From Paracyclopina nana (lineage: Eukaryota > Arthropoda > Copepoda > Cyclopoida > Cyclopettidae), in NCBI GenBank assembly GCA_019096065.1, contig JAGUCH010000004.1, positions 806,001 to 870,000 on the forward strand: a stretch of DNA of 64,000 nucleotides, in the 5' to 3' direction. This document shows positions 12,813-55,409 of the stretch, piece by piece. Below the pieces are notes generated by a model, which worked only from the letters and a program-made list of their open reading frames with translations, had not been told where the DNA came from and searched no databases. Every line of letters begins with the position of its first letter. Positions within the stretch are counted from its first letter, which is position 1. Position numbers and translations under genes: made by a program.

Positions 12813-12823
12813 AATGACTATAA

Positions 12824-29728: not shown

Positions 29729-29902
29729 TTTTTATTGAAGAAGAACTCTCAAGCTGCCAACTGTACAATAATGAGCATTATTTCTTCACATGTGACGAAA
29801 AAATCCATTATTGTACGGTGGATGAGAGCGCACGCCAAATCTCAGCAAAATACCGGGATTTTCGCTTCACTGCCGTATGTAGTGAACCCACCGCCAAGTT
29901 GA

Positions 29903-30688: not shown

Positions 30689-31395
30689 TGATGGACGACA
30701 AGTTCATCATGGCGTTATGATATGGAAATGGGATGACAGAAACAGAAGGAAGAAGAAGATGACTATTCAACGCAAAAATATCAACCATAACCTCGCAACC
30801 TCCAGTTGAATTGCATCAGAAATATGGGAAGGAAGATGAAGCTACCTGGAAGGGAGGTTAGCCTTGGGAGGACAAGGCAGGATTGCGGGGAAGAGGGGAG
30901 TTCTTCAGGGGACCTCAGAGAAGCAACATGTCAACTTTATAGCTAGAAGTTGACTGGTGTGAACTCTGCCAGCAGCTGGAACCAGAAGATCCTCACCAAG
31001 TTTGATGTGTACAGTACTGAAGAGGCAGCCACAGAGAAGAACTTTATTGTTATATACATATTGTTTTGAGCTCTGACTAGAAGCAGCTGTTATTCGTGTT
31101 GTGCCTGCTAATGAATAGAAAATACCACCAGACCTTAATGAAGTATATTAGTGCTCGGACTCATAGCGAGGTCCTGATCCCTGGAATGATCAGGGTGAAA
31201 GGGCGAGCCTTAACCACTGGTCAACTGTACATAAGCGTGCCGAGAGGTTCCTTGCCAGAAGCTGTGTACGTGAGGCTGCGGCCTCTGCATAGCGGCTTGT
31301 GAGACCTGGCAGCTCCGGTGTTGCGAATGAGTACTGGACTTGGGACCGATGCTTAACCTTCCTAGGTTCCTGAAGAGAGTACGAATTGTAAACCA
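30689..31395 (+). repeat. Inner giant element 5' LTR (707 bp)
   Basis: Begins TGATGGACGAC, ends TTGTAAACCA. Preceded by GATG at 30685-30688. TTTTGGAGGCCCCGGAGGG follows and is the likely primer-binding region. Confidence 0.93.
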
Positions 31396-32681
31396 TTTTG
31401 GAGGCCCCGGAGGGATTGAATGGCCACTCTCTCTCTAGTGGTTTGAAGACCAAAAAGAAGTCCTGGAAAAAGATGGATGGATGCGTCCTGAAGTTACCCA
31501 TTTGTGGCTGTGAATTGCCGAGGGCGAGGCTGCAATGGTTAGGCGGCACTTTAGTTGCGACTGGGGTGTGTCAATACTGTAAAAGTCCTGAGGCTGACGA
31601 GCCAAGAAGGCCATCCCGGTGGAAGTGTCTATGTGTAGTCTAGCGGTAAATGCAATGAAAAAGGCACACGTACATTTCGCATCGTTGCCACATTTAGAGG
31701 TTGTGCCTAAAAGAGACTATATCTATTAATGGACAGCCCTAGTTTGTGATGAAAATTCCATGGACCCTAGCCAGACAAATTTCCTACGTTGTGTGGCCTG
31801 GAACTATCATTTCCTAAGGGAGAAGGTCCGTGGGGACGTCCTTGCTTGGCTTAAGCTGGAAAATGGGAGCCAAGCAGCCGGAAATGGTAGCTGGGTGGTG
31901 GCATGCGTGTCATTGCCTCTGTGGGCTTTAATGGGTCAATGGAGCTCAAGATGGGAGCCATTTTGGAAAGTTGAACCCGTTAGAAGCTGAAGCAGATGGA
32001 AGAACAAAAACCTGGAGCGCGTAGGGCGTGCATGGAGCTTGAGGTGGAAGCCACCTTGGAAAGTGTATGGTGCTCTGGACCAGGGCTCTTCTAGGGCGCA
32101 AAGAATGCGCGCCTGGGCGAGCTTCGTATACCTGTGTGTGTGTGTACCTCTTTCTCTTTCCATTCACTTTGTTGAGCTTGCTCAGCTTAGTGGCGTTCAA
32201 AATTGGTAAAAGTGAATGCAACCCTTGTTTTTCAGCTTGTGGGCACTTAGGATTCTGTTGGACATCTGGTGCCTAGGTTTGGTAATATCTCTTCTGAGCA
32301 AGTGCTCATCTTTATTCTTGTGTGTGTGTGTGTATATTTGTGTGCGTGTGGGTCTTTGGTGAAGGCTACTTAGGTAAAAGTGGTCCTAATCATTGAAATA
32401 AAATTTGTCATAGTAATTGTAACCTTTTCCCCGAGTCACTTGACCGGCGTAAGTAGGAAGCTAACTGTGCTTTGAACAGTATTACGATTAAAAGCTTTAG
32501 CTTTTAATTGAGTGCGATTAGAGGCCTAGTGCTTTTAAGTCGTGCGACGTAGCTCAGTACGAAAAGTTAGCATTTGTGTTAACTTAGTACAAAACCTAGT
32601 TGAGTCTTAGAGATTAACTTCTCTGACGAAACTAAAGGACAAGTTGAGTTAAAGAGAACCTCTCTTTAGCGAAACGGAAGG
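31396..32681 (+). other. Inner giant element leader
   Basis: 1.3-kb untranslated region from primer-binding site (TGGAGGCCCCGGAGGGATT, 31399) to gag. Includes short GT-repeats near 32130 and 32320. Small ORFs here show no coding character. Confidence 0.65.
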
Positions 32682-35168
32682 ATGTCTCGTGATTTGAAAA
32701 ATGCACTTTTAGTGCACTTGGAAGTCACTGATATTGCATTGGAGAAACTGCTGAAACCTTGCACTCCTACTGGGGGAAGCAGGGAGGCAGTGAAGGACTT
32801 TCTATCGTGGGTCAAGTATCCGACGTCTACGGGTCCCTTGAATGTCACCAAGGCAGAGGTGATAAGAGCATGGAATGCTACACAAATTATTGTCCTAAGC
32901 ACCGAGGAGCCCCTTTCTCTTGATTTGCATATTATGAAAATCATAGAGCAAATGCCCCAGGATGATCCTATTAGACAGATTATGGTGGTGGTCAGGTATG
33001 TCAATGCAATTGACCCTCCTGACCGCAATTCGGCTACGTGTGCTTTGCTCCTCTATTGTTTTGGTATGGAGTATTTAAATAAAGCATTCAGGGAGAAGAA
33101 AACGATCATTCTTAATAGATCCACTGATGCCGGTGAAGGGGACTTTGCTAGCCCTAATGAGGAATTGGAGCCAATAATAACAGCTCTGAGTACTATGATT
33201 AATAAGGAGAAACTTGCTAACCCAGCGACAGGATTAGATGCTGTGGCTGCTTTGTTCGGATTACGGCCTGACTTCTTCTCAGAACCTGATGATGAAGAGG
33301 GACTAGTGATCTCCACTTCGTTTGCAGTGGAGGATCCGCCAAAGGATGCTAATAAAAACAAGTCATTGGACCTGTCGGCCATCCCCAAGAAGGTTGGGTT
33401 CCAAGATGGCCAAAAATCAATCCTCACTTCTACTAAAATGACTTTGAAGGACTTGACTGTCCTAAATAATTCGGTGGTTCTGCCCCCTGGTAAGGTGATA
33501 GAAACCACAGTGATGAAATTGCTGAAAGGAAAGGCCTTGAGTCCGTATGACTTGGGTGTGGTGCGAGCCCACTACACTGCATTGCATGACGCGAGCACTG
33601 CCAATAAAATAATAGCTACTGCCCAAATGACTGCTAAGCACATGTTTGGGGCGGACCCGAATGATATTTATGAACGAAATCTGGAACGGGTCTTGAAATT
33701 AGCTGATGCTGCGTCCAAGGATTCATTAGTACCAGTTGCTGAGTCGGTCTACCATGAAGATGCTCCACTGGATGAACGGATTGAAGCTATCAATATTAAC
33801 GAAATAGTGGATGTTGAATCTGCTAGGCGAGTTGTGTTGCAAATGGTGGATCCGGATTTGTCTCCGGGAAAGAAGGTCATTGAGATGCAAAAGCTATTTC
33901 AGGCTTTGCAGACCAGGCCTGAGTTTACCGCATTGCAGCGCAAAATCTTTGTGGAATGTCACTTAAAGAGCCCTGAGGTGAGCTATGCGGTTCCCTCGTA
34001 CTCCGAACATTCGAAAAGTGTGTATGATCCTAAATACAATAAGGATTATATACCTTTGCCTCCTAATGGGCACCTGAAATTTGCCAATACTAGTGCCCTC
34101 AAGGAAATCAGAGCAAAGTACTCTAAGAGGTTCGATATGCAAAGTTCTTCTAATACTGCTGATAGTGTGTTAGAATTCTTGCGCACAATAAGTACACTGG
34201 CCCACCGGTATGATTGGAGCCATGATGCTATAATTGAAGGTTTATGCGAAGGGGCCACTGCAAGCACAGCTGAGTACTTCAGAGGTGTGGCAAGTGAAGG
34301 CGTAGAGATCCTTTGGAATGACATCTATGCTTACACTAAGAATGTCCAGGAGGTGGATGAGTTTATAAGAATACATAATATCATCAGGAATCCCACCCAG
34401 ACTTTTGACCAGTCTGTAAGGGAATTGTATAAACTCAGGTTGCGAATCCATAGAGACTCTATGGATGGGGATGGCAAAGCACATGCCATTTCTGAAACAA
34501 TCACTGATGCGCATGCCCTGCTGAAAAGGCATTGGCCTCAACAATACCAAGGGTATATCAATATATACCATGAGCATTTGTTGAAGCAAGGCACGCCCCT
34601 GAGGAGCATGGCTGCTCTATCTGAGATGGTCAAGGTAATTGGGGGCCATGTGGGGACCCACATACCGAAAACTGAGCGAGACAGAGGGGCTAGAGATGCT
34701 AGACTACCTATGGCCCCAGCTGTTAAACACAAAGCCCATCTTGCTATGGTTGAAGTTGATGAGGACAATTTGGACAGTGCTAGCATGCTATCAGTGATGT
34801 CACATGTTAGCTCAAAGAGTGCCAAAATAATAAGTGCTCTGCATGGTGAGTTGGCTAGAAAGAATACAGAATTGGAACGCCAAACTGCTGAAGTAGCGGC
34901 GTTAAAAGCTGAGACTGAGGCTGAGCGATCTAAAAGAATTGCAGCTACCTTTAATATCGACATTAGTAAGCTGCCGGCGGGGAACCCGTTCGAAACAGGT
35001 GGATGCCTGTTCTGCAATGGGACCCACTATGCCAAAAGTTGCGAGAACTATCCAGGTGTTTCACTGGATGAGTTAAAAAAGGATGGCACTGTGTGTATAT
35101 CTTGTAAAGGATTACACAAGGTCATAAATGGATTACCGTGCTGGAAGTCGCGACAAGCACGAAGGTAA
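32682..35168 (+). CDS. Inner giant element Gag (828 aa)
   Basis: Long Gag with an N-terminal helical region, a capsid-like central region and a coiled coil near residues 700-755 (SAKIISALHGELARKNTELE). Two zinc knuckles close it: CLFCNGTHYAKSC (C-x2-C-x3-H-x4-C) and CISCKGLHKVINGLPC (C-x2-C-x3-H-x7-C). The start is ATG at 32682 with an in-frame stop at 35166. Pol is open in the -1 frame from 35108, giving a 61-nt overlap, so -1 frameshifting is the likely expression route; no standard slippery heptamer was evident. Twice the usual length for Ty3-type Gag. Confidence 0.8.
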   Translation: MSRDLKNALLVHLEVTDIALEKLLKPCTPTGGSREAVKDFLSWVKYPTSTGPLNVTKAEVIRAWNATQIIVLSTEEPLSLDLHIMKIIEQMPQDDPIRQIMVVVRYVNAIDPPDRNSATCALLLYCFGMEYLNKAFREKKTIILNRSTDAGEGDFASPNEELEPIITALSTMINKEKLANPATGLDAVAALFGLRPDFFSEPDDEEGLVISTSFAVEDPPKDANKNKSLDLSAIPKKVGFQDGQKSILTSTKMTLKDLTVLNNSVVLPPGKVIETTVMKLLKGKALSPYDLGVVRAHYTALHDASTANKIIATAQMTAKHMFGADPNDIYERNLERVLKLADAASKDSLVPVAESVYHEDAPLDERIEAININEIVDVESARRVVLQMVDPDLSPGKKVIEMQKLFQALQTRPEFTALQRKIFVECHLKSPEVSYAVPSYSEHSKSVYDPKYNKDYIPLPPNGHLKFANTSALKEIRAKYSKRFDMQSSSNTADSVLEFLRTISTLAHRYDWSHDAIIEGLCEGATASTAEYFRGVASEGVEILWNDIYAYTKNVQEVDEFIRIHNIIRNPTQTFDQSVRELYKLRLRIHRDSMDGDGKAHAISETITDAHALLKRHWPQQYQGYINIYHEHLLKQGTPLRSMAALSEMVKVIGGHVGTHIPKTERDRGARDARLPMAPAVKHKAHLAMVEVDEDNLDSASMLSVMSHVSSKSAKIISALHGELARKNTELERQTAEVAALKAETEAERSKRIAATFNIDISKLPAGNPFETGGCLFCNGTHYAKSCENYPGVSLDELKKDGTVCISCKGLHKVINGLPCWKSRQARR

Positions 35169-38100
35169 TGTCTGAAATGGAAGAAAAACCTAAAACAGAC
35201 ACTACACATGATGATAGTTATGTTCTGCCCTCTTTTATGCGTGGAGAATGTAACAAAGAAGTAGGGAGAGTGTATTTTGATCACCTAAAAGCACTCTCAG
35301 AAAAGAGAAAACAGTGCGCAAAGAGGCCTGATGAAAAAACCTCAAGTGCCATTGTTTTGGCCATATCTGGTTCTCAGTACATGAATGAGACTAAAGATGG
35401 GTTAACCCCACCTAGGATGTGGAAAGAAATATTGTTATGGGTAATTGTTATGCTAGCTTTGGTGCTGTGGCTGAACAATTATGACCAAGTCGTGCCTGTA
35501 GCGATAGCATACATTATAATAATGGCATGCTTGTGCATGTGCTGGTTCTTTCCAGACACATCCTACAAGTATGATGTACCTGTACATGTGGCGAAGCTAA
35601 CTGCTGGCTGCATTGAAACTCCGGATGAAAATGTACAGCTAGAAAGGATCATTAAAGACGATGACACGCTAAGTGTATTTTCCTTAAAATTACACAATGT
35701 GTGTGAAAGGTACTACATACCTGTCCAAGTTACAGGCCAGATTAGACTTCATGCCTTATTCGACAGTGGAGCAATGGTTCAAATCATATCTCGCACTCTA
35801 GTAAGGTTAATTGAAGAAAAATTGGGTTACTCATTACCGCGAGTTCAAACCAATTATCTTATTAAGAATTTCAATGGGGAAGAATTTCCCAGCACTGAAG
35901 GCGTGGTTCTGCAAGTCGCCTTTAACAATAGAGTATTGATTAGACAAGCAGTGTTCTTAGTCTCTGACTGTGAGACCCTGCTTATGATTGGGAATTCGTT
36001 ATTAGTAGATAATAACATACGCTTGACTAGTAGGGATGGAAGTCATTTTATTGATTTCCCAGGGCGAATAAAATATAAAAAGATTCCCCTAGTCCTTACT
36101 AAGGAAGCGTTCTACCCTGTAGCTATAAATGAAAGTATTACTGTGCTACCTGGAAGGGAAGTGACAGTTAATGCTAGCTTTCCGCATGAGATACCTTTGG
36201 TAGCTGAGCCCAGTCTTGGTGATTCAGACGCCGAAGTGGATTATGATGAAGTTAAAATAAAGCCAAAAAGTAAAAGCGTTTACTCTAGCTTTCATGATAA
36301 GTGTTTGGAATTTAGTCCGGATGAGGATTATACCAGCGCTACTGCTGAAGGATGTGTTACTTCTGTGACCCGGAAGGGCACTTTCCCAGTGCAGATAGGT
36401 AATAATTCCAACGAGCCCATTTACATTGAGGCTCATTCTATCATAGGGAAGGCTAATATTGTTAAGAAACAACGCTATAAGCCTACCCAAATTGTGCATA
36501 AGTTAAACCTCAGTTTAAAGTCTTTGAACCATATAGTGGACACTTGCTATTGTGAGTTTATTGACACACATATATTGGTGCAATTTGTTGATATAAATGG
36601 ATTAGCGTTCACTGACATGCACACCTTTAATGAACAAGTTCACATAAAGGGTAATGTTAAACAAAAGCTGACCAGACATTGGAATCATGTTTTCATTGCC
36701 TCTAACCAATCTGATGGTTTTGAGGAAATCACGGATGACCTATTGATGGAGTTTGTCAGTAAATGGAACTGGAATAGCCTACCATGGGTAGTTGTTGTCC
36801 CTAGTGATAAATTATTGTCTGGGGAACAAAAGCGGATTATATTGAAGCTCAACGCTATAGTTGAAAAACTAAGTGTAGTTTGGGTGAAATACAAGAACGT
36901 TCATGATAAATGTAGGACTATAGCTCTCACTCCTATAGAAAATTACCTGGCTGGTATGGAGAGAGTGGTACTAACTATCATGGTTCATAGTTACGATTGC
37001 TTTCCTGTTGCTTATCAAAGAAATGGAAATGATAAATATTACGAATACACTGTCTTGGGTGCTCCCACCGTCTTGTATAAGATAGCAAATGACATAGAAC
37101 TAATGGTTCATGTGCCTTGCTCCAATTCAAAGGATGTTGGTTACATGGCTACCTTAGTTTACAATATATTTGGCCATTTACGTTACAAATGTGTAGCTGA
37201 TAATATATGGGTGAGAACCTTAATGGATGGTGATGTGTCAGTAGAAGAACCGGTGTGTTTAGCAGTGTCTTCTGCATTGTTATTACTATCGGGCTTGCCT
37301 ATGTATCCACATGAATCTACATTTGAGGATATAAAGACAAAGTTTGGTGGTTTTATACCTTTTGAGTACAAGCCAGACAATTGTGCTTGTGCCCTTTGTA
37401 TAGCTAAGCGTGCTGGATCTAAGATAATGTGTAAAAGTTACACTACTATATATGAAGGCCCAATAGCTGATCTCTGTGTCAGGCAAACGGTAATTAAAAA
37501 CCCCTCTGAATTGGACTTAGTGTCCGCCTCTTTAGAAATAACGCAAGACGAGGCAAAGAATCAGAGGCTGTATGAAGAGGTTTATAACCTTTTATTGCAG
37601 TTCCCTAGTGAATTTGACCCACATCGAGTTCTAAATGGAGTAGCTGGCTACACCTTTCCATTGGAACTTGACACAGTCTTAAAGTTTGACCTGGACCACA
37701 TACCAGTGGAAGTCAGAGAAGACTACAGGAATATATTGATAGAATATAAGGACATCTTCTCTGATGATCCGAGATCTTTTAGGTTATGGAATGTGGACCC
37801 CGTAAAATTTCAATTAAAGGACAATAAACCCCTGGTACCGAAGGTGTTTAACATGTCTGAGTATGAAACCACCCAAGTGGATAGGAAGATATCATTAATG
37901 TTATCTTCTGGCTTAATTGAAATAGTAGATAAGTCTTTAAATAGGTACTCTGCTTGCCCTTGCTTCTTAACATCAAGGCCAAACGATGAAAAGTTACCTA
38001 TGAAACAACGTAAACCTAGGTTATTAGTGGACCTGACGTCCTTTAATAAGAACCTGATTTTTACGCCATCTGAACATATTGTTCCGCCTATTCCTACATT

Positions 38101-38788
38101 ATTAGGGATGCTTTCGAACTCATGTTTGATGTCATCTTTTGATGTCACCTCAGGATATGACAACTTACCTGTTGATTCTGACAGTGCAGATATGTGCTGC
38201 CTGGCTGTGACGTCACCACGGTCTAGGTATAGAGGCCTTTATTTGAAAAGTAAGGCTATATTGCAGGGTACGGCCTTGGCTGTGAGAGAATTTTCATCTT
38301 TATTAATTCAGGCAATTAATCCTGAAATATTACCTTTCACTTGTGTCTATGTAGACGATTTATTGGTCTCTTGCAAGAATCCGGACAAACCGAAGCCGGC
38401 AACTCTAGACGATTATAAGAGGCATTTAGGTGATCTCAGGAAACTGTTTGACAGTTTAAGGGAACTAAATGCATTATTACAAATCAAAAAGACTCAATTA
38501 GGGGTCAAGGAAGCTACAGTCCTTGGACACCTCATAAAAATTGATGAGCATGGAGTTATGACGATGCAGATGCCTGATAAATACAGGACTGCGTTTGATG
38601 ACTTCCCGATGCCTTCAACAAAGAAGCAATTACAAAAGTTCATTGGTATGACCAACTGGTTAAGCCAATATTGTCCTAACATGGCCACTTACACGGCACC
38701 TCTATTGGATGTAATGGCAACTAAACAGGGGAAAACAGGAAGTTTAACTTCTCCCCTTTTCAAGAAAAATGCTTTTACAAGGTTATAG
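35108..38788 (+). CDS. Inner giant element Pol part 1: membrane hairpin, protease, RT
   Basis: Divergent Ty3-like Pol in -1 frame to Gag; no ATG is needed. Counting from 35138, two hydrophobic helices at about 98-112 and 119-138 precede an aspartic protease (LFDSGA, near residue 207). About 600 unrecognised residues follow, then RT from roughly residue 880, with SSFDVTSGYDNLP (first Asp), QGTALAVREF in place of the usual FGL-A-P, and YVDD at about 1070. The thumb region (GHLIKIDEHGV, KFIGMTNWLSQY) is Ty3-like, not BEL/Pao-like. The frame closes at 38788 while the homologous reading continues in the -1 frame, open through 38752-38806. Confidence 0.8.
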   Translation, partial: RITQGHKWITVLEVATSTKVMSEMEEKPKTDTTHDDSYVLPSFMRGECNKEVGRVYFDHLKALSEKRKQCAKRPDEKTSSAIVLAISGSQYMNETKDGLTPPRMWKEILLWVIVMLALVLWLNNYDQVVPVAIAYIIIMACLCMCWFFPDTSYKYDVPVHVAKLTAGCIETPDENVQLERIIKDDDTLSVFSLKLHNVCERYYIPVQVTGQIRLHALFDSGAMVQIISRTLVRLIEEKLGYSLPRVQTNYLIKNFNGEEFPSTEGVVLQVAFNNRVLIRQAVFLVSDCETLLMIGNSLLVDNNIRLTSRDGSHFIDFPGRIKYKKIPLVLTKEAFYPVAINESITVLPGREVTVNASFPHEIPLVAEPSLGDSDAEVDYDEVKIKPKSKSVYSSFHDKCLEFSPDEDYTSATAEGCVTSVTRKGTFPVQIGNNSNEPIYIEAHSIIGKANIVKKQRYKPTQIVHKLNLSLKSLNHIVDTCYCEFIDTHILVQFVDINGLAFTDMHTFNEQVHIKGNVKQKLTRHWNHVFIASNQSDGFEEITDDLLMEFVSKWNWNSLPWVVVVPSDKLLSGEQKRIILKLNAIVEKLSVVWVKYKNVHDKCRTIALTPIENYLAGMERVVLTIMVHSYDCFPVAYQRNGNDKYYEYTVLGAPTVLYKIANDIELMVHVPCSNSKDVGYMATLVYNIFGHLRYKCVADNIWVRTLMDGDVSVEEPVCLAVSSALLLLSGLPMYPHESTFEDIKTKFGGFIPFEYKPDNCACALCIAKRAGSKIMCKSYTTIYEGPIADLCVRQTVIKNPSELDLVSASLEITQDEAKNQRLYEEVYNLLLQFPSEFDPHRVLNGVAGYTFPLELDTVLKFDLDHIPVEVREDYRNILIEYKDIFSDDPRSFRLWNVDPVKFQLKDNKPLVPKVFNMSEYETTQVDRKISLMLSSGLIEIVDKSLNRYSACPCFLTSRPNDEKLPMKQRKPRLLVDLTSFNKNLIFTPSEHIVPPIPTLLGMLSNSCLMSSFDVTSGYDNLPVDSDSADMCCLAVTSPRSRYRGLYLKSKAILQGTALAVREFSSLLIQAINPEILPFTCVYVDDLLVSCKNPDKPKPATLDDYKRHLGDLRKLFDSLRELNALLQIKKTQLGVKEATVLGHLIKIDEHGVMTMQMPDKYRTAFDDFPMPSTKKQLQKFIGMTNWLSQYCPNMATYTAPLLDVMATKQGKTGSLTSPLFKKNAFTRL

Positions 38789-38805
38789 AGGAAATAAAGA
38801 CAGGA

Positions 38806-44189: not shown

Positions 44190-44430
44190 TCAAAGAACGG
44201 GTCGCCATTCTTTAATCGCAGCGCTGCCCAGCCATGGGTGGGCGTGGGCTAGCGCAATAATAGCCTACGTTGCATTAAGCAACTTTAAAAATAAAAATTA
44301 GAAGACAAAAATGAAGGATGCGACACCCTTGCAAGCGGGTCGCCGTTCTTCATGCACTGCTCTGCCCGAATTGGGCTAGAGCAAGCGCGATAATAGATTA
44401 CGTTGCATTAAGCAACTTTAGAAACGTTCA
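44190..44430. repeat. Two ~140-bp direct repeats with conserved hairpin
   Basis: Both copies contain GGGTCGCC(A/G)TTCTT, then ATAATAG..TACGTTGCATTAAGC ending in AACTTTA; GTTGCATTAAGCAAC is a perfect 5-bp stem hairpin. The middle is diverged. They could be a duplicated structured RNA or simple repeat growth. Confidence 0.55.
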
Positions 44431-44511
44431 TGGCCACAGCGTCCTGTGACCATGTTTATTTAAAAAATTATTATTATTTTATTAGTACTGAGCAAAAGGA
44501 TACTTACCTGA

Positions 44512-44590
44512 AGACTGCCAAGTTTTGGAAGGATTTTCCTCCCAAAACCTGAGCTTCTTGGGTAGGGGGGGTACCCAGAGCCAGAGCACG
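44512..44590 (-). promoter_or_regulatory. Putative antisense leader exon with strong splice donor
   Basis: On the minus strand a C-run (TACCCCCCCTACCC) is followed by a short hairpin and then TTCAG|GTAAGTATCC. The outer element has a counterpart at about 63351-63426 with ACTCCCCCCTCC and TTCAG|GTAAGTATG in the same orientation relative to the element. No downstream coding exon was found, so a non-coding antisense transcript is possible. Confidence 0.4.
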
Positions 44591-46743: not shown

Positions 46744-46851
46744 TTAGCTGAAAATAACTTTCTCAGTGAAAGAAGTAAGCTTGCCCACCAACAAAATGAT
46801 CGCTAATATAATGGCGATAAAGAATGCGAGATAAGCTGTGTACGCTGGCAT
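46744..46851 (-). CDS. Possible transmembrane microprotein (35 aa)
   Basis: ATG at 46849-46851 (context AAAATGCC) opens 35 codons with one strong hydrophobic helix (YLAFFIAIILAIILLVG) and a short basic end. A TATA-like TATATATTG lies about 110 bp upstream on the same strand. It is inside the repeat region and antisense to the element, like genes A and B. It could be chance. Confidence 0.3.
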   Translation of the reverse strand: MPAYTAYLAFFIAIILAIILLVGKLTSFTEKVIFS

Positions 46852-48431
46852 TTTACTTGCTTGCGCCTTATGAGCATAAAGGTTAGTACAGCAGTGAAGC
46901 TCGCTAGATGGTGCCGCTAGCCAAAGGAGTGGCTGGAACGGACAGTAAAGTTCGCAATATATAGAAGGTGTAGCGAAGGAACTATTTCCATTTGCTTCAT
47001 CGACAAAATATGACCTAGAGGGATCATGAATGCGCATATGCTTTGTGGATAAGAACTACGTAACACGCTATACTTTGAGAAGTGTGCAAACGAGGAGCTT
47101 ATCGCCATATTGTACGTAAAGAAAATGTGCATCAATAAAGGCATTTAACTTTGTGACTCTTTTTGTGCTTGGGGTTCTGCCCCCTACAAGCCAAATGAGA
47201 CGCTGCCGTAATAGTGGCCATAAGCTGAGTAGTTGCCTCTCCACCTCAGGTTAGTCTCATAAATGAGCTCTTGGCAAATGGCGCTAATTACGCGAAGGCA
47301 GTTAATTTCTGTGGGGCTCAAAAGCGAGCCCTATCATTAAAATATAAAATATGAGGGCAGTGACCTGGAAAGGTTCTGAGAATGCTGATGTGAAAAAGAG
47401 CTCATGATAATAACTGATGCCGCTTATGCGCCAATGAGGATGCAAATATCTTCTTAGCATTCAGCCTAAGAACGAAACGTTGTGAATATAAATTACCCCT
47501 GTGTTAGTGCTAGGGGGCGCCACGGGTGGTAATCGTGAATCATAAATTTCACTAGTAACACCATGCCACTATAGCGTAGAGGCATAAAAGCCAAGGAGCA
47601 GTACATTAATGTGGACCTATTATTAATGTGCATTGGGGACCTTTTCGAAGCCTTGAAAGGCGTCGAGGCTAATGTGTACTGTTTCTTTTACCAAAAGAGA
47701 AAATAAGACTGATGAAAAGATGGTACCGCGGTGTGTGCTAAACAGACTATCTTTTTGTTCACTTTTTGTTCCTAGTCTCAGTTTGGGTTTTGCCCCTTTC
47801 TTGAGCTAAGGTGCGTGAGGCATCTGGGATCAGAAGAATAAAGCAATGCTCCAGGGGCTAGTCCCTTGGTTTATGGGCTTGAACCTTCTTCTTTTCTCTG
47901 CTTATGACACCTGATTTCGGATCCCTCCGCGCATCCGTATTTTTGTTGGGCGATAGCGCCCCTTATTATAGCTAATATGGAAAGTAATCTACTCGTCGCA
48001 CCGTACAGAATTTTATGTGCAAGTGCTGAACCGAGTACGAGAAGGTTATTGTTATTACCTGCTCACGTGAGGTGACGAGATAAGACCTTAACCTCTGATT
48101 TTCGGCTATGGCTTTCTACCTGTGGAGCTAATTATAATGTGCGTGACAAACGCTGTAAATGTAGCTTTTCGTTAAGATGCTTGAGAAAATGCAAAGCTAC
48201 TATACACAAACATGAGAATATCGTAGTCGGCAAGGCTCGAGTTATGCCATGCTAGTGTAAATATGATATGATAAGATGAGGCAGGCAAAGCAAATCGGCA
48301 CTCGAAGAAGCCGTAGTTTTTGCTGAGGCTTTGGCAATGAATGGATGAGTCAGCAAAACATAGGTTGCTCAGCTCAGAAAACGCGAAATGATGTGCGATG
48401 ACTCAGATATCAAAAGTAGGGCGAAACTGGC

Positions 48432-49120
48432 TTTATTGCCCGAAAGGGAGGTGAGGCCGGGCCCGGCGGGAAGGTGGGCCGGGGGTGCGCCCTGTTGCCC
48501 CTCCTCGCATCCAGACAGTTCTGAAAGAATAAAAACAGTGTCAAGGGTAATTCCGTTAAGCCTGATAAGGACACTTACTACACCACGCCCTCGAGGGGGT
48601 CCTCGGTCTCGGGGATCCCGCAGAGGCTGAGGACCCAGCGGGTCGCCCGGGGGAGCTCCTCTGGCTCGGCCCAGAAGCGGCTGACGAGCCGGTACAGCCC
48701 CCGGGGCTTGGCCCGGTTGACCCAGACCAAGCCCGGGAGCACCACCCCATAATAGGCGGCCGCCGCTGCCACGTTTATGGCGATGCCCTAGAGAATCTCT
48801 TCGGCCTGCAATGAAAAGGAAGATCACTAATGGAATCTAATCTGTTATGAAAAGAACTTACAACACCATCCCCCTGGCAGGTCTGGCCTTGAAGGCCCGC
48901 TAGCTGGCCTGCGGGCTCCTGGGGCAGCAGGACCGCGGACTCGGCCGCGGCCTGCCCCCCTTCGACGGGAAGGTGGGCGGGGGCAGCCGTCGCTGCTGCT
49001 GCTGCTGTTGATTGTTCTTGAGACTGTAAAACATAAAATGTTGTTTTACGAATAAGATTGCACTGGAATTTAAAGATTTCTGTTTGCACTTACGAAAAAA
49101 CCGTCCAAAAACGGGGCCAT
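48432..49120 (-). CDS. Cassette gene A: small GC-rich single-pass protein, spliced, internal TAG
   Basis: Exons 49120-49094 (MAPFLDGFF), 49023-48862 and 48805-48579, with a fourth exon from 48520 to the AATAAA at 48437-48432. All introns are GT-AG and 56-70 bp. Exon 2 is Ala/Pro/Gln-rich. Exon 3 opens with five codons and then an in-frame TAG at 48790-48788, after which the same frame encodes a membrane segment (YYGVVLPGLVWV), a basic stretch and PLEGVV. The stop is split by the last intron (TA|A). The homologue A' has the same exon layout, the same internal TAG and the same split stop. Either the TAG is read through or an acceptor at CTCTAG removes it. Family unknown. A conserved CTGGTAGCGC lies upstream of both copies. 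Confidence 0.7.
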
Positions 49121-49503
49121 TTTGGGAAGAATGCTAACTGAAGCGCTACCAGGTAATTTGTCACTTATATGAGTAAGAAGTTAACCAAAAGTGCCAAAAT
49201 AAAAGGAACACTTGCGTTAGCTCATAAAGCAGTCCTGACTGCTATGCCGGCATTCTTGGTTGATGTAACTACCACACTTGGCGGTATTGAACTTGTGTTA
49301 TGAATATATGACTATTAGGGCATTAGTGCTTTTATTAGTTTATTGGGTCTGGCAATGCTTATGTAAATAAAAACAATAACATAGTGCTAAAACAGACCGC
49401 ATAAAATGAAGAATTTCCACCCGAAAAGTTGAACTTGACGAGTGGGATGACTAAGTGTAAGACTATTGGGCCCCGCGAGGTCTGATGAGGTCGCCATGGA
49501 TCA

Positions 49504-50512
49504 CTAATTGGTGGGCTCTGCAATAGTGCTTGACAATGCGTGGGTGGCCTCGTTTGGAAGTTCTTGGATCACTGCCCCAGTGGTCCTCGGGACATTGACG
49601 TAGAACTGGCTCCGGTTGCGGCGCCTTTTGTTCCTTCTCTGCTTAGAGCGTTGGCTTTCATCTGTTTGCCCCTGTAAAAAAGGCACCTGATGAGGATCCA
49701 AGGTACACAAAACGCATGGAGTAGACATCTTCATTGAGCTTTGATCCCATTAAGAAAACAAACGATTACTTACTTGTCCCAGTGGCCGCAGCACATCATA
49801 GATGGGCTCGTTCAATGAGGGGCGTGAAAAGGTGGTGACATGGTAAGGGGGCGTGCCTCCACGTACCCAGATCATGTTATCAAAATTGGACATTGGCACT
49901 GAAGGCAACGGTCTCCTACTCATAGTATCGTAAAGTTCCGGGAAAGAGGGGTTTGCCAATGGCAAGGCCAGAGGCTCCAGCTCAACCTGGTCAATGACCT
50001 CTGCGTTCTCAACGCAGGCTCGGCATAGACAGCACCGCTTGCACCTCTTGTACAGGCGGTACATGAAGCATGTGACCATGATTAGGAGAAGCTGCAATGG
50101 CGAGGGAAAGTATTAATGTCTAGCCTTGCTTAAATTCTATGGTCATAATTGGACTCACCAAAATGATCACTAGGGCCGCTACCAGGCCAACCCAATCCTG
50201 AACGCTGTACCGATCGAATTCGAAGAAACTTCGGGATGACGGTACAGAGGGGTCGACCTCCGCAGTATCCTTTGGAGCGGACTCCGTAGAGGTTGCAACC
50301 TCAGGGAAAGGACTAGTAGAGGCCGTGGTAACCCTAGTTGGGGGTGCTGCAGTCGCCATTGTTGAAGTTCTTGTCCAAGACTCGGGCAAGGTCCACCTAG
50401 TGGTGGTTGCAAGGGTCCTTGCAGTGGGACGAACAGTCGTTGGCAATGTGCTAGTCATTGCTGTTGTAGTTGTAGCCGCCGTAGTGGTGGTGGGCAACTG
50501 GAGGAAACCCAT
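49504..50512 (-). CDS. Cassette gene B: Thr-rich membrane protein, spliced
   Basis: Exons 50512-50159, 50091-49774 and 49671-49504 (GT-AG introns of 67 and 102 bp, phase 0) give 279 residues. The N-terminal ~90 residues are Thr/Pro/Ser-rich, a mucin-like ectodomain. One membrane segment spans the first splice junction (DWVGLVAALVIIL then LLLIMVTCFMY), followed by a Cys/Arg-rich juxtamembrane stretch, tyrosine-containing cytoplasmic motifs (EPIYDVL) and a very basic segment in exon 3 (RRNKRRRNRS). No clear signal peptide, so a further 5' exon is possible. An AATAAA lies at about 49336 on this strand. Antisense to the retroelement; diverges from gene C. Family unknown. Confidence 0.7.
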
Positions 50513-50839
50513 GACTTATGTATATAAACAACTGTAAAGTTGGGCTATTATAAGTTCAAGGGTTGATATGCCGCTAAAGACTGCGTGAAAGCTGACCAGG
50601 GCATTGCCTTTTATGCAAGAGAGCTTGACGTATGTCGCAAGACCGAGTCTTGAGCAGTGGAATTTGTTGACTCAGCAGCTTGGAGACAAGAGCAACAAAT
50701 TCAGCGGGGAGAAATGATTCACCCAGGCAACGAGAAAATTGCGCACTATAATATGAACGTGCTGGAGAAATTATGGTAATAATAACGCTGTGAGGCGCTG
50801 TTGGTTACCTGGTTGAGAGCTATAAAAGAAGGGGTGGAA
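50513..50839. promoter_or_regulatory. Bidirectional B/C promoter region
   Basis: 327-bp gap between divergent genes B and C; the outer element keeps the arrangement with a gap of 364 bp (59078-59441). TATAAAAG at 50821-50828 points toward C. No CTCF-like motif seen here. Confidence 0.5.
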
Positions 50840-52438
50840 ATGAGCAGGTTCCAGTCTATGATGAACACTGCTGCCGATACCACCCTCCCCAGCCTTGCCA
50901 AACTTGGTGAAGCTTTGCCTGAAAACGAGATGGATTCAAAAAAGAATGTTGAAGTCCGAAAGGTTGACGTGGTCATGATCCCGCAGATAGAGGATCATGA
51001 ACATGAGGCTTTGCTTATGGAAGAGGTACCTGAGGGTGTGGCCCCTGGTGCAATCGATCAGGATGCCTACCGGGCTAATGCCCAGTTTTGGGATGAAGAA
51101 AGTGCAGGGTTAGACCAGATGGCGCTCTTTGCTGATGCCCAAACTGGCGATGAAGCTGATGAGGCAGAGGGACATCCCTTACATGTGAGAGGAGGGGATG
51201 CTCCAAGGAAGGACTCTGGTGATCAGGTTATCCATGAGAATGTAGAACATGAGGTTGCAATTGTGACTCAGGCTCCTAATGCTAGAGTTCTGACTGAAAA
51301 AATGGATCAGGATGATGAAGGACCAGCACCTACTCACAATGGTGAGGTAGCCCGTGCTGACCCTAGATTGATGAGGCCTTGCATAGTTGAGCTCCCCCTT
51401 GGGGATGAAGCTGTGAGGCTAAGGTATCCTGTGGCGTATCAGGACTTGATCCGCCCTCCATTTCCGGATACTGTCAAGACTTATAACCGTCAAGCAATGG
51501 CTGTACGGGAGTTGGTCCAGAGGGGCTATAACGAAGCCATGTTAAAAGTGGCTGTTAGCAATGCTCCGATGGTTAGCCGTGAACGAGCCTTCGATGTCAC
51601 GGTACGGTGCAATGGTGAGGTCCTGGAGCAACCGGACTTTCGTCGCCCACTCAAGGTGTGTAACTTTGAAACCTTCGAGTTACAATTAAAGCCAGTTAGC
51701 GAGGGAGGACCGCTACCAGACTTTGTGGTGGTTTTCTTGATGTTGGGGACGCTCCCAGTCTTCAATTTGCCAAAGGAGGCTGCGTTCAATGACACCTATC
51801 ATCGACGCACGAATGTAAGGGATTGGGCTGCGATTCAAAGCCCCTCTGCACTTAGCTACGCAGTCTACAATGTCCAAGGAAGAGACGGTGCCAGAGTACC
51901 TGTTGTGGTATCCAAGCATCTGGCTAAACATGGCGTTGTTCAACTGAAGCCAACACTGGATAGGTCTTTTGCCAATGCCAGGCTTTTTATGGATGTAAGC
52001 TCACCTTACTTCCAGTTGCATGTTGGAACCCCATCTTGCCTAATGCATGAGGTTGCCCAAGCTCCTCGAAGAATCGATATCAAGGTCGACTTGACTGCCA
52101 TGCTGCCCCGCGAGGTGGGCAGGTTTGTGGAACGAGTTGAGCGCTCTAACCCCCAAGCGATGCGTTTCATCTCTGGGGCCCGCTCACTGAAGGTAGCCGA
52201 AATACAGGATCGGCCACAGAAAAACCGTCGAGGTACCCGCACTTACTTGGAGGCGGCGACTAATCAATCTGCTGGGGCCATGTCTATTAAACAAGGAGCT
52301 CCAAAAGCGAAACGTACCAAGGGCGACAAGGAAAAGGCTCGATTGGGCCAATTAATTGTAGCCAAGATGGAGACGCTATCATCAACTGACTTGAAGTCCT
52401 TTGGAGCGGCGATAAATAAGTTTGTTGACCAATTCTAA
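50840..52438 (+). CDS. Cassette gene C: unrecognised soluble protein (532 aa)
   Basis: Start chosen at the ATG at 50840 because GGAAATGAGC is shared with the start of the outer homologue C'; the upstream codons are not conserved. The first ~190 residues are acidic and variable. A conserved core follows, with DLIRPP, FDVTVR, RRPLKV, PVVVSKH and SPYFQLHVG blocks shared with C', and then a basic NLS-like KAKRTKGDKEK and a C-terminal helix ending FVDQF. No membrane segment, zinc knuckle or known fold is recognised. It may be a structural (matrix or nucleocapsid-like) or regulatory protein. It is intronless and carries its own TATA-like box. Confidence 0.75.
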   Translation: MSRFQSMMNTAADTTLPSLAKLGEALPENEMDSKKNVEVRKVDVVMIPQIEDHEHEALLMEEVPEGVAPGAIDQDAYRANAQFWDEESAGLDQMALFADAQTGDEADEAEGHPLHVRGGDAPRKDSGDQVIHENVEHEVAIVTQAPNARVLTEKMDQDDEGPAPTHNGEVARADPRLMRPCIVELPLGDEAVRLRYPVAYQDLIRPPFPDTVKTYNRQAMAVRELVQRGYNEAMLKVAVSNAPMVSRERAFDVTVRCNGEVLEQPDFRRPLKVCNFETFELQLKPVSEGGPLPDFVVVFLMLGTLPVFNLPKEAAFNDTYHRRTNVRDWAAIQSPSALSYAVYNVQGRDGARVPVVVSKHLAKHGVVQLKPTLDRSFANARLFMDVSSPYFQLHVGTPSCLMHEVAQAPRRIDIKVDLTAMLPREVGRFVERVERSNPQAMRFISGARSLKVAEIQDRPQKNRRGTRTYLEAATNQSAGAMSIKQGAPKAKRTKGDKEKARLGQLIVAKMETLSSTDLKSFGAAINKFVDQF

Positions 52439-52703
52439 ACATATGTATTTTGATTTTGGTGTAGATATGGATTATGAGTTTTGATCAACTTGCTAAAGGA
52501 CCTCGGGTTCTAAGTAGGTTAGACTCGAGATATACGGTATTATAAAGTAAGATATGGTCTTGTGCGCACCTGACTATACTAATAAATGTTTGGTGGGGAA
52601 GGCTGGCTCGCTTGCCTTACCCGAAACAAGTACCTGTTGTACATATAAGGCGGCGTGGGCCTGGGGCCTAGTCAGTTTGTGCTTGACATTCGCTGAGTTA
52701 ATA

Positions 52704-54587
52704 ATGTTGGTGCTTGTGCTTTTGACTTTGTCTGTGCCCATAATCAACGGCCGGGCTGCATCTAATGCACTATTAGATGGACCGGTATGTCACAAAGGGC
52801 ATGCCTTGGTCCCTGTGCGCGTGGTTTATCATCCTAAGCCTGATAAAAAAGCTATGATCATAGACACTGGTAATTTCCGCCAGCTCCTTGAAAAGACCCT
52901 TGACTCGGTGAATGTGCTCGAGGATGGTGTGGGACGATTAACAGAGGAGGTTCCTACAACTCAGACTCCCACTGATGTAGTGACCTACCAAGATAGAGAA
53001 TATGTGGGTGTTAAGGCTCCGCCAACGAAATTGGATGAGGAGTGTAAAACACTAGGACTTGATTTTAACTCGTTTATTCCGGAAAACCAAGTTGACATGG
53101 ACAGAACATTAGAACTTTTGACTCAAGCAGCAGATTCTAATACTGCAACTACCTTCACGTTTTGTTTGAAGTTTCGTTTCATTGGGAACTCTCCAGTTTC
53201 ACTGGATGGACGTGTTCCTTTTGATAGAATTCCATGGAAAGAAGTTCCCAAAGCTTCCATCAAACCTGGATTCCCATGCATAACAGGGAAGTTTGCTGAT
53301 AAAAAACTAGTAGAGGCCACGTCACATCTTTTTGACGGCACAAGCCCGGTGGGAACTATTTGTGTAAGGCATAAATACGCCATTAATCATAAGGGCCAGA
53401 TAAGCCATAAATTGTCCAAGGCCAAAAGTATGGTAAACCATGCTTTGACCGCTCTTAATAACCTTGCTGAAGCTGGTCGCACTACAAAATTTACTGAAGG
53501 AATGATGAAGAAAGTCAAACTTCTGGTCATTCCGGATAATATTAGTTTAGCAGTACACATGCTACGAAAGGTTAGTGACGCATTTGTAAAGCTTGGCTAC
53601 TTGCCCAGAGATTACAAGGAAGTGCTAGCGATGGTGGAACAAATAGTTACCTTTGCTAGAAACATTAGGCAGGTTGACAAGCGATTCAGTCTGCCCCGAG
53701 TTAACATAGCTAGTGATTTGGAGAACCAAGCTGTGACAAATAGTGTGTATGATCCACTAACTAATACTGAAGTGGTGGGCGATAGTGTATCTCAGGGAAT
53801 GGTGAGTTTCCACAGTCTGGATCCTGAACCCGAAGTGACATTTAAAGTAGTGTCTAGAAGTGTTCATGGACAAGTGTTAGCGGACACATTCTTAACAAAA
53901 TATAAAGATATGGCTTATGTCACTAAGGATCTACCTATTTATGGAGATTGCTATATGCATGATGCCAATGTCACTGTGTGTGGTCATAAGCTTGTTACAA
54001 TACCATACGGAGCCCAACAGTGTGCCAAGTTATTATTGGGCTTAGCTTTGGGTGACCCTTTTTCCGAGTGTAACATGGTCCCACTGACTGATAATACATT
54101 GGAAGAAGTGGCTTGCCATGAGTACAGAGGGTTCCTGAACGTCATCAAGGACACTTCTATAAACAGAACTTGCTTAAATGACTTTAAGAATTCCATAACT
54201 TTAGTGCCTGGCTCGTACCAAGTGCTGAGCCATTGCCTGGTCACGATGGGAAGTTATAGTACTGGGTATGAAGACTCCCCATGGGAAAGTGACATTTTGA
54301 AGTTCTTTACAAAGTTTCCAGAGGAAGAGCCACTGGGTTTGTTTGACCATTGGAAAATCATACTAATTATAAGCACACTTTCAGGCTTTATTATAATTTT
54401 GTTAGTCTGCATCCTAGTGTGGAAACGTCGGGCACTAATCCGCAAATGCTGTGGAGAGCCTGATTATGTTGAACCAAGAGCTGGGCGCCGGCGGATTAAT
54501 GCCAGGCGCCTTGACAATGGAAAGGACCCCATGGAAATGGGATTGATGGGTGGAAAAAACAAACTTGGGGCTGCTACGTTAGTATAA
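52704..54587 (+). CDS. Cassette gene D: envelope-like type I glycoprotein (627 aa)
   Basis: Start taken at the ATG at 52704, because the signal peptide there (MLVLVLLTLSVPI) aligns with the start of D'; the frame is open further upstream to 52554. A TATAAGG at 52648 lies about 56 bp upstream, as in D'. Conserved Cys residues, several N-x-T/S sites, one membrane helix near 550-574 and a ~50-residue basic Cys/Arg-rich tail indicate a surface glycoprotein. The last residues TLV resemble a class I PDZ ligand and are kept in D'. Position beside the 3' LTR is that of env. No furin site or fusion peptide recognised; family unknown. Confidence 0.75.
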   Translation: MLVLVLLTLSVPIINGRAASNALLDGPVCHKGHALVPVRVVYHPKPDKKAMIIDTGNFRQLLEKTLDSVNVLEDGVGRLTEEVPTTQTPTDVVTYQDREYVGVKAPPTKLDEECKTLGLDFNSFIPENQVDMDRTLELLTQAADSNTATTFTFCLKFRFIGNSPVSLDGRVPFDRIPWKEVPKASIKPGFPCITGKFADKKLVEATSHLFDGTSPVGTICVRHKYAINHKGQISHKLSKAKSMVNHALTALNNLAEAGRTTKFTEGMMKKVKLLVIPDNISLAVHMLRKVSDAFVKLGYLPRDYKEVLAMVEQIVTFARNIRQVDKRFSLPRVNIASDLENQAVTNSVYDPLTNTEVVGDSVSQGMVSFHSLDPEPEVTFKVVSRSVHGQVLADTFLTKYKDMAYVTKDLPIYGDCYMHDANVTVCGHKLVTIPYGAQQCAKLLLGLALGDPFSECNMVPLTDNTLEEVACHEYRGFLNVIKDTSINRTCLNDFKNSITLVPGSYQVLSHCLVTMGSYSTGYEDSPWESDILKFFTKFPEEEPLGLFDHWKIILIISTLSGFIIILLVCILVWKRRALIRKCCGEPDYVEPRAGRRRINARRLDNGKDPMEMGLMGGKNKLGAATLV

Positions 54588-54702
54588 AGCTAAAGTTTTG
54601 TTGTATCACTTATCATTTACTATATGAGCGATCTAGTCACCTTTTTTCATATTTTAGTTCATAAAATGATGACAAAAGCTGAAAAAGTTTGGGCCGGGGT
54701 AA
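54588..54702 (+). other. Inner giant element polypurine tract region
   Basis: GCTGAAAAAGTTTGGGCCGG starts near 54679 and leads to GGGGTAA just before the 3' LTR. The outer element has a matching GCTGAAAAAGTTAGGGCCGG tract. Confidence 0.75.
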
Positions 54703-55409
54703 TGATGGACGACAAGTTCATCATGGCGTTATGATATGGAAATGGGATGACAGAAACAGAAGGAAGAAGAAGATGACTATTCAACGCAAAAATATCAACC
54801 ATAACCTCGCAACCTCCAGTTGAATTGCATCAGAAATATGGGAAGGAAGATGAAGCTACCTGGAAGGGAGGTTAGCCTTGGGAGGACAAGGCAGGATTGC
54901 GGGGAAGAGGGGAGTTCTTCAGGGGACCTCAGAGAAGCAACATGTCAACTTTATAGCTAGAAGTTGACTGGTGTGAACTCTGCCAGCAGCTGGAACCAGA
55001 AGATCCTCACCAAGTTTGATGTGTACAGTACTGAAGAGGCAGCCACAGAGAAGAACTTTATTGTTATATACATATTGTTTTGAGCTCTGACTAGAAGCAG
55101 CTGTTATTCGTGTTGTGCCTGCTAATGAATAGAAAATACCACCAGACCTTAATGAAGTATATTAGTGCTCGGACTCATAGCGAGGTCCTGATCCCTGGAA
55201 TGATCAGGGTGAAAGGGCGAGCCTTAACCACTGGTCAACTGTACATAAGCGTGCCGAGAGGTTCCTTGCCAGAAGCTGTGTACGTGAGGCTGCGGCCTCT
55301 GCATAGCGGCTTGTGAGACCTGGCAGCTCCGGTGTTGCGAATGAGTACTGGACTTGGGACCGATGCTTAACCTTCCTAGGTTCCTGAAGAGAGTACGAAT
55401 TGTACACCA
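54703..55409 (+). repeat. Inner giant element 3' LTR (707 bp)
   Basis: Matches 30689-31395 except for C at 55405 in place of A; followed by the target duplication GATG (55410-55413). Confidence 0.93.

What the first reader, a model, noticed from the sequence alone, without database searches (positions are those of the whole stretch)
30689..55409. A 24.7-kb LTR retroelement with a four-gene bidirectional cassette
Paired 707-bp LTRs, a 4-bp target duplication, primer-binding site and purine tract define one element that carries gag, pol and four further genes: A and B antisense and spliced, C and D sense and intronless. The same cassette in the same order sits beside the 3' LTR of a diverged second element. 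Two independent copies make capture by chance very unlikely. I do not know a described Ty3-like element with this gene set.
Basis: partly seen in the sequence, partly recalled or inferred. Interest (0 to 1): 0.95.

Follow-up and report, generated by a model that had tools for sequence, protein, structure and literature searches.

The report
Giant retroelements with bidirectional envelope cassette
In one small animal genome, a large group of giant virus-like jumping genes carries, beyond its copying genes, a conserved set of membrane-protein genes read in both directions, which may let the elements pass between cells the way enveloped viruses do.

Summary
Element 30689-55409 has 707-bp LTRs (one mismatch), a GATG target duplication, gag, a Ty3-type pol, genes B and A (antisense, three exons each) and C and D (sense). 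Of 12 fam1 LTR pairs in the 92-Mb animal assembly, 12 hold B, C and D in this order. Three further families share the cassette: fam2 (about 23 kb; 34 copies with an open D; this element sits inside the 3' LTR of one), fam3 (22.7 kb; B and D in 7 of 7 pairs) and fam4 (18.9-28 kb; D found in 5 of 7 pairs; A and C in the copy read, B not found). D falls to 26-31% identity between families, yet seven membrane-proximal cysteines, the A intron inside the transmembrane segment, gene order and a TATA box about 60 bp before D persist. C, D and A are under purifying selection. Gag, C and D diverge in step: one old acquisition, not two captures. D looks like a type I envelope glycoprotein; A and B like small N-out membrane proteins. 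No relative of D or C was found in the collections searched. Best reading: complex envelope-type LTR retroelements with internal promoters and a cell-to-cell transmission cassette. Function is inferred.

The parts
30689..31395 (+). 5' LTR of element 1 (fam1), 707 bp, TG..CA
   Evidence: homologous LTR pairs elsewhere
54703..55409 (+). 3' LTR of element 1, 1 mismatch to the 5' LTR
30685..30688 (.). target-site duplication GATG, left copy
55410..55413 (.). target-site duplication GATG, right copy
31399..31417 (+). primer-binding-like site (tRNA not identified)
   Evidence: same letters in fam2; the one guessed 20-nt tRNA end gave 0 matches
32682..35168 (+). gag, 828 aa, with two Cys/His knuckle-like motifs at its C-terminus (read by eye; no Pfam match); homologues in fam2 (46%), fam3 (25%), fam4 (25.6%)
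35168..42648 (+). pol (two hydrophobic segments, PR, RT, RNase H, integrase, long C-terminal extension); its ATG overlaps the gag stop (TAATG); frame broken at the RT/RNase H junction in this copy, while 4 other fam1 copies have a 2513-aa open pol frame
42649..48369 (.). about 5.7 kb between pol and the cassette without a convincing gene
48578..48787 (-). gene B exon 3 (transmembrane segment, basic tail)
48862..49023 (-). gene B exon 2 (Ala/Pro-rich N-terminal region)
49094..49120 (-). gene B exon 1 (9 codons)
49504..49671 (-). gene A exon 3
49774..50091 (-). gene A exon 2 (second half of transmembrane segment, basic/Cys cluster, Tyr motifs)
50159..50512 (-). gene A exon 1 (Thr-rich N-terminal region, first half of transmembrane segment)
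50821..50828 (+). TATAAAAG, core-promoter-like, just upstream of C
50840..52438 (+). gene C, 532 aa from this ATG (the ATG at 50858 is the likelier start given the TATA box)
52644..52651 (+). TATAAGGC 60 bp upstream of D's ATG; similar offset in fam2, fam3 and, with the signal-peptide-like start, fam4
52704..54587 (+). gene D, 627 aa, envelope-like type I glycoprotein (hydrophobic start, 7 invariant membrane-proximal Cys, C-terminal TM)
54691..54699 (+). G-rich tract before the 3' LTR (imperfect polypurine tract)
29902..30688 (-). distal part of the 3' LTR of the fam2 element (minus orientation), interrupted by element 1
55410..55553 (-). proximal part of the same fam2 3' LTR
55656..57541 (-). 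gene D of the fam2 element, in two overlapping frames (broken in this copy)
57779..59155 (-). gene C of the fam2 element, open
59442..60492 (+). gene A of the fam2 element (3 exons; exon 2 frame broken in this copy, open in the L011 copy)
61001..61540 (+). gene B of the fam2 element (exons 61001-61027, 61099-61257, 61334-61540)

Best explanation
Element 1 belongs to a lineage of giant Ty3-type LTR retroelements in an animal genome that is old (families down to 25% Gag identity) but has recent insertions. The lineage acquired once, and has kept in fixed order and orientation, a surface-protein cassette between pol and the 3' LTR: D, a large type I envelope-like glycoprotein; C, a soluble partner protein (matrix-like, less likely a transactivator); and A and B, two small N-out, single-pass membrane proteins with basic juxtamembrane tails, read from the opposite strand and spliced. 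Shown: the gene set, order, predicted exon structure, recurrence in four families (B not found in fam4), purifying selection on C, D and A (weaker for B), and near-identical LTRs in the pairs compared. Inferred: D, C, A and B are made from their own internal promoters as separate mRNAs, so the antisense introns survive because the genomic RNA is the other strand; Pol is made as a separate protein by restart at the ATG that overlaps or abuts the gag stop, and is membrane-anchored by its N-terminal hydrophobic pair; together these let Gag cores leave the cell enveloped, or pass between cells, and enter the germ line.
For: Cassette in 12 of 12 fam1 pairs (B, C, D), 7 of 7 fam3 pairs (B and D), 5 of 7 fam4 pairs (D). 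One fam4 copy has gag-pol, C, D and A with 615-bp LTRs at 100% identity. Four-base TSDs GATG, CATT, CCTT, GTAA with TG..CA ends for one copy each of fam1-4 (for fam3 and fam4 the boundary was placed by hand, 1-2 bp from the BLAST edge). D: 7 Cys at the same spacing in 4 of 4 families (one gap shorter by one residue in fam4) and one strongly hydrophobic C-terminal segment. A: phase-0 intron inside the TM with GT-AG sites in fam1, fam1b, fam2, fam3 and fam4; four N-x-S/T sites in the fam4 N-terminus (read by eye). dN/dS about 0.11 for C, 0.10 for the D C-terminal piece, 0.14-0.19 for A exons (fam1 against fam1b), about 0.3 for B (fam1 against fam2). TATA-like box at -60, -62, -61 of D in fam1-3 and -62 in fam4 if the later, signal-peptide-like ATG is taken (start chosen after the fact); such hexamers occur at 0.0016-0.0025 per base. 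Gag stop and pol ATG overlap in fam1-3 and abut in fam4; hydrophobic segments before PR in fam1, fam2, fam4.
Against: No sequence relative of D or C was found (Pfam 5, 62; PDB sequences 60, 61; viral contigs 63, 126; for D also 14, 69), so 'envelope' rests on topology alone. Structure models are poor (pLDDT 37-38) and fold matches useless. No RNA or protein data. No TATA match within 150 bp upstream of A or B in fam2, C in fam3, or D in fam4 from its first ATG. B was not found in fam4. The signal peptide of D passes the hydropathy cut-off in fam1 and fam4 only. fam3 Pol segments fall below the cut-off; fam3 C is split over two frames in both copies read. A fam1 resembles the host-type Commissureless family just under cut-off (26 against 27 bits), which could mean host origin or only a shared TM type.
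Confidence: 0.6

Rival explanations
1. The cassette is a transmission module of the FAST/sORF2 kind rather than a true virion envelope: A and B (N-out, TM, basic juxtamembrane patch) fuse or bridge neighbouring cells so that capsids pass directly into germ cells, with D as adhesion protein and C as linker.
For: A and B have no evident signal peptide, a central TM and a basic juxtamembrane stretch in the families where they were found; this resembles the hallmarks described for MDG1-group sORF2 (PMC11952523, abstract and sections 7 and 8).
Against: A is 280-305 aa, longer than sORF2 (about 70 aa); sORF2 lies upstream of gag and its RNA showed no splicing; a large glycoprotein D is also conserved. 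The myristoylation motif predicted for four of six sORF2 proteins (MGxxxS/T) is not at the start of A or B in fam1 or fam2 (read by eye).
Confidence: 0.17
2. The extra genes act inside the producing cell: C (acidic N-terminus, basic C-terminus) is a transactivator, and A, B and D change sorting, signalling or immunity of the host cell, as accessory genes of complex retroviruses do; particles stay intracellular.
For: C has an acidic variable N-terminus and basic C-terminal stretch. A carries two Tyr motifs shared by fam1, fam1b and fam2. The TM and basic part of fam1 A matches Pfam Comm (Commissureless, a receptor-sorting membrane protein; function seen in abstract starts) at E 1.1e-5, 26 bits, cut-off 27; fam1b at E 0.006.
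Against: The Comm match is below cut-off, covers mainly the TM, is accompanied by other weak TM families, and is absent in fam2, fam3 and fam4 A. D's envelope-like architecture and strong conservation fit surface function better; C's conserved core is in the middle and predicted beta-rich, at low confidence.
Confidence: 0.13
3. A captured host gene cluster hitchhiking without function for the element.
For: Spliced genes of ordinary eukaryotic appearance; no viral relatives found; the weak Comm match of A.
Against: Conserved in four families with purifying selection; the D matches that I placed lie in these LTR families. Not every match was checked: 65 of 129 candidates were scored and 74 of 118, and fam2 pairs were not tabulated.
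Confidence: 0.05
4. The whole unit is an endogenised complex retrovirus, or a cassette from an undescribed enveloped virus fused to a Ty3 element, that arrived by infection.
For: Four families with high-identity LTR pairs in the copies compared (fam1 99.86%; fam2 100%; fam3 99.5%; fam4 100%) and many open copies; no cellular homologues found.
Against: No virus record matches (for D); the host's relatives could not be searched.
Confidence: 0.05

Closest known systems
Metaviridae / Ty3-gypsy LTR retrotransposons
   Same: LTR TG..CA, 4-bp TSD, gag, PR-RT-RH-INT order; best solved-structure match of the RT is Ty3
   Different: RT part only 21-27% identical to the 6 hits of the protein collection; pol of 2513 aa (fam1) to 2688 aa (fam2) with hydrophobic N-terminus and long C-terminal extension; four extra genes
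Burro giant gypsy elements of planarians (PMC6431247, passages seen)
   Same: Giant gypsy-like element of an invertebrate with an envelope-like region
   Different: Burro's env homology lies in frame between gag and pol in one huge polyprotein; here D is a separate gene beside the 3' LTR, with antisense spliced partners
Plant Retand and Grande elements with antisense genes between pol and 3' LTR (PMC11963269, passages seen)
   Same: Long pol-3'LTR region with conserved antisense genes; a cited title says Grande's accessory gene has its own promoter
   Different: Retand antisense ORFs mostly encode TRP28, and its sense ORFs there had no transmembrane regions. Here A and B are membrane proteins and D is envelope-like
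MDG1-group sORF2 of Drosophila (PMC11952523, abstract and sections 7 and 8 read)
   Same: Small N-ectodomain, TM, basic cytoplasmic patch accessory protein in an LTR retrotransposon
   Different: sORF2 is about 70 aa, upstream of gag, with no evidence of splicing; no D-like glycoprotein
Foamy viruses (PMC7828637, passages seen)
   Same: Pol made as a separate protein, not a Gag-Pol fusion; internal promoter (recalled)
   Different: Foamy Pol comes from a spliced mRNA; here restart at an overlapping ATG is inferred. No relation of D to a foamy Env was found by Pfam or PDB search
Troyka (PMC12440569, abstract read)
   Same: Divergent animal gypsy-like lineage
   Different: Troyka has CG..CG termini and 3-bp TSDs; here TG..CA and 4 bp

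Membership tests
LTR retrotransposon, Ty3/Metaviridae type | Paired LTRs, TG..CA, 4-6 bp TSD | tested here: met
   (TSD for one copy per family)
LTR retrotransposon, Ty3/Metaviridae type | PR-RT-RNase H-integrase order | tested here: met
   RVT_1 3e-9 and rve 5e-8 above cut-off; protease (0.028) and RNase H (1e-4, 6e-4) below cut-off but in order
LTR retrotransposon, Ty3/Metaviridae type | RT groups with Ty3 in a phylogeny | not tested
   only nearest solved-structure match and protein hits; no tree built
LTR retrotransposon, Ty3/Metaviridae type | tRNA-complementary PBS and polypurine tract | tested here: inconclusive
   TGG-initial site in 4 of 4 families, tract G-rich not pure; one guessed tRNA pattern, 0 matches
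Envelope-bearing endogenous retrovirus | Recognisable viral fusion glycoprotein | tested here: not met
   no match for D; no similarity to the Monjiviricetes-type glycoprotein in the same window
Envelope-bearing endogenous retrovirus | Signal peptide, Cys-rich ectodomain, C-terminal TM | tested here: inconclusive
   by hydropathy: TM and Cys pattern in 4 of 4; hydrophobic start over the cut-off in fam1 and fam4, below it in fam2 and fam3
Envelope-bearing endogenous retrovirus | Membrane fusion / infectivity | not testable with these tools
   needs bench work
Burro | env homology in frame between gag and pol | tested here: not met
   against the description
Retand | antisense TRP28 domain ORF | tested here: not met
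   no TRP28 in Pfam scans of spliced fam1 A and B, fam2, fam1b and fam4 A and a fam3 A part
Troyka | CG..CG termini, 3-bp TSD | tested here: not met
FAST/sORF2-like proteins (for A, B) | N-ectodomain, single TM, basic juxtamembrane patch | tested here: met
   (topology inferred from sequence)
FAST/sORF2-like proteins (for A, B) | Cell-cell fusion activity | not testable with these tools
   needs bench work
Commissureless (Pfam Comm; for A) | Match over the curated cut-off | tested here: not met
   fam1 A 26.0 bits against 27; fam1b 17.3; fam2, fam3, fam4 none
Foamy-virus-like expression | Pol not fused to Gag | tested here: inconclusive
   stop/ATG overlap in fam1-3, abutting in fam4; a TAA inside the pol match of most fam2 copies listed

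The most novel reading that the evidence does not exclude
These are founding members of a new family-level group of complex, enveloped reverse-transcribing viruses of animals, now endogenous. Their surface proteins D, A and B and matrix-like C come from no known virus, each is made from its own internal promoter on both strands with introns on the antisense side, and Pol is a separate membrane-anchored protein.
Probability: 0.35. Interest if true: 0.92.

Novelty: new variant of a known kind. Interest (0 to 1): 0.76.

Why it matters
Envelope-bearing retroelements usually carry one env gene expressed with the LTR transcript (recalled). Here a lineage has kept, across families whose Gag is down to 25% identical, a bidirectional gene block with apparent promoters of its own and antisense spliced membrane proteins. 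It shows that LTR elements can carry a DNA-virus-style gene layout stably, offers a new protein family (D) with a fixed cysteine pattern and no relatives found, and makes the question how retroelements become infectious testable in an animal that carries dozens of near-identical copies.

Tried and rejected
Structure prediction of C and D from 2-3 sequence alignments gave pLDDT 37-38; BFVD fold searches gave no match at E <= 0.001 and I do not use the top names. PDB-sequence profile search gave only chance-level matches for D and none for C. Searches of the large protein collection gave none for D (7999 and 8000 best candidates scored); C was not searched there. Viral-contig scans gave none for D or C. 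D is not similar to the other glycoprotein in the window. Spliced A gave only a sub-cut-off Comm match and weaker ones, B none. A guessed tRNA 3' end was absent, so the primer tRNA is unnamed. A bacterial-type promoter scan is irrelevant here. I first took the two pol ORFs for a programmed frameshift; one search rejected that. Troyka was rejected on termini and TSD. The host species was not identified: Wnt matches at three places and a PRP6 matching human PRP6 at 908 bits show an animal; the 18S search did not complete. No RT tree was built; fam2 LTR pairs were not counted.
Full report
The element. The window is G000:C4:806001-870000 of a 92-Mb assembly in 10 contigs. The LTRs 30689-31395 and 54703-55409 differ at one base, the TSD is GATG, and RT and integrase domains pass Pfam cut-offs, protease and RNase H fall below, with Ty3 as best solved-structure match. 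Relatives of the RT part in 5.8 billion proteins are few and distant: 6 hits at 21-27% identity. Pol of this copy is broken at the RT/RNase H junction; in 8 of 8 other fam1 copies examined there (of 11 others) the frame runs through, one of them with another break nearby, and 4 fam1 copies have a 2513-aa open pol frame.

Nesting. BLAST of fetched fam2 stretches against the window shows that window 29902-30689 and 55410 onward are adjacent in other fam2 copies. So element 1 landed inside the 3' LTR of a minus-strand fam2 element, whose D, C, A and B occupy 55656-61540. fam2 LTRs are 926 bp, identical at both ends of the C1 copy; on C4 fam2 units follow each other at 22.3-kb spacing sharing LTRs, so one unit with both LTRs is about 23.2 kb. 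The fam2 copy of the window has a broken D and a broken A exon 2, while C is open; the L011 copy has A, C and D open but a pol with stops.

Copies in the genome. fam1: 12 LTR pairs, 11 of them 23.8-24.8 kb and one 37 kb; B, C and D in order in 12 of 12 (C or D in pieces in some), and pol, in part in some, in 12 of 12. D is one open frame of at least 628 aa in 9 of 12 and in pieces in 3; C is open over its full length in 10 of 12. A subfamily, fam1b, has 3 pairs with C and D, B in 2 of 3 at the threshold, and stops in D in 3 of 3. fam2: 40 DNA matches at 96-100% (40 of 137 candidates scored); 34 copies with a 637-aa D frame without stops among the 67 matches. fam3: 7 pairs, B and D in 7 of 7, D unbroken in 6. 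fam4: 7 pairs, four of 18.9-19.4 kb and three of 27-28 kb; D found in 5 of 7 (one search scored 74 of 118 candidates, so the 2 misses are not proof of absence); the copy read has gag, pol, C, D and A, and no B similarity was found. Further partial and solo copies exist. Counts are lower bounds.

Evolution. D of fam1 is 44% identical to fam2 D and 28% to fam3 D; fam4 D is 26-29% to the others by tblastn. Over aligned codons Gag fam1/fam2 is 46% and fam1/fam3 25%, D 46% and 30%, C fam1/fam2 46% and fam1/fam4 25%, so cassette and gag diverged together. Between fam1 and fam1b dN/dS is 0.106 for C (0.176/1.666) and 0.098 for the C-terminal piece of D (0.193/1.975; the N-terminal piece is saturated in dS), and 0.14-0.19 for A exons; B fam1/fam2 gives 0.295/0.935. 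dS values above 1 are rough. A is fast: fam1/fam2 exons 2 and 3 align poorly, and homology there rests on position, exon structure and the Tyr motifs.

Gene models. A: three exons, phase-0 introns, 279 aa in fam1 and 304 in fam2 without the stop; intron 1 falls within the TM segment in fam1 and fam2 and, with GT-AG sites seen in the DNA, in fam1b, fam3 and fam4. B: exons of 27/162/210 bp in fam1 and 27/159/207 in fam2, 132 and 130 aa. Both lack an evident signal peptide and have a Thr-, Pro-, Ala- or Asn-rich N-terminus, one TM and a basic tail. fam1 A matches Pfam Comm (Commissureless) at 26 bits, cut-off 27, over the TM and basic part; fam1b weaker; fam2, fam3 and fam4 not; B matches nothing. 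I treat this as a lead only. D: 7 Cys in the membrane-proximal part at the same spacing in 4 of 4 families (one gap one residue shorter in fam4) and one TM near the C-terminus. C: soluble, unknown.

Expression, inferred. TATA-like boxes lie at -60, -62 and -61 from the D ATG in fam1, fam2 and fam3. In fam4 none lies within 150 bp of the first ATG, but one lies at -62 from a later ATG that opens a signal-peptide-like stretch (that start was chosen after seeing the others). For C they lie at -42 in fam2 and -37 to the second ATG in fam1, more distant in fam4, none in fam3; for A and B fam1 has matches, fam2 none. The gag stop overlaps the pol ATG in fam1 and fam2 (TAATG) and fam3 (ATGA) and directly precedes it in fam4, which suggests restart rather than a Gag-Pol fusion. 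Two hydrophobic segments precede the protease in fam1, fam2 and fam4; fam3 has weaker ones below the cut-off.

What it is and is not. Nothing in Pfam, PDB sequences or IMG/VR matches D or C; the large protein collection was asked for D only. In papers I saw passages on Burro, Retand and foamy viruses, the abstract of Troyka and the abstract and two sections on MDG1 sORF2; each shares one feature and lacks others. Searches listed no paper that I recognised as describing this gene set; for most only titles and abstract starts were seen. I file it as a new variant of envelope-type Ty3 retroelements by architecture, with membership in the envelope-bearing class open because D has no recognised fusogen relative.

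Noticed in passing
window 16867-27295: A second, unrelated LTR element: 172-bp LTRs 100% identical, 4-bp TSD CCTC, Ty3-type RT/RNase H and integrase zinc domain in overlapping frames, and a Monjiviricetes-type viral fusion glycoprotein (E 2.5e-34) at 25593-26594. Frames look interrupted.
   Followed up: partly
window 3013-14245: Three tandem copies of a 4.86-kb unit; first two 98-100% identical in the stretches shown, third 91-98%.
   Followed up: no
window 14628-14887 and 28067-28325: A 250-bp direct repeat, 98.8% identical, flanking the region that holds the 16867-27295 element.
   Followed up: no
window 399-3086: Host PRP6 splicing-factor gene with few introns in the stretch read.
   Followed up: no
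L009-L012 and L013-L016: fam2 units share LTRs in tandem on C4, and the C1 copy contains an internal duplication of several kb, as by recombination.
   Followed up: partly
window 48570-48580 and 61534-61545; L017 near 697: In fam1, fam2 and fam3 the stop codon of B lies on a GTAAGT splice-donor-like sequence (TA|GTAAGT), which hints at a further 3' exon with the stop spanning the junction.
   Followed up: partly
window 49774-50512: Gene A of fam1 matches Pfam Comm (Commissureless) just below cut-off over its TM and basic part.
   Followed up: partly
L017:3435-4678 and L018:3423-4666: fam3 gene C is split over two overlapping frames in both copies read: shared break, intron or recoding.
   Followed up: no
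G000 fam4 pairs on C2, C3, C6: Three of 7 fam4 LTR pairs are 27-28 kb instead of 18.9-19.4 kb; extra content not examined.
   Followed up: no
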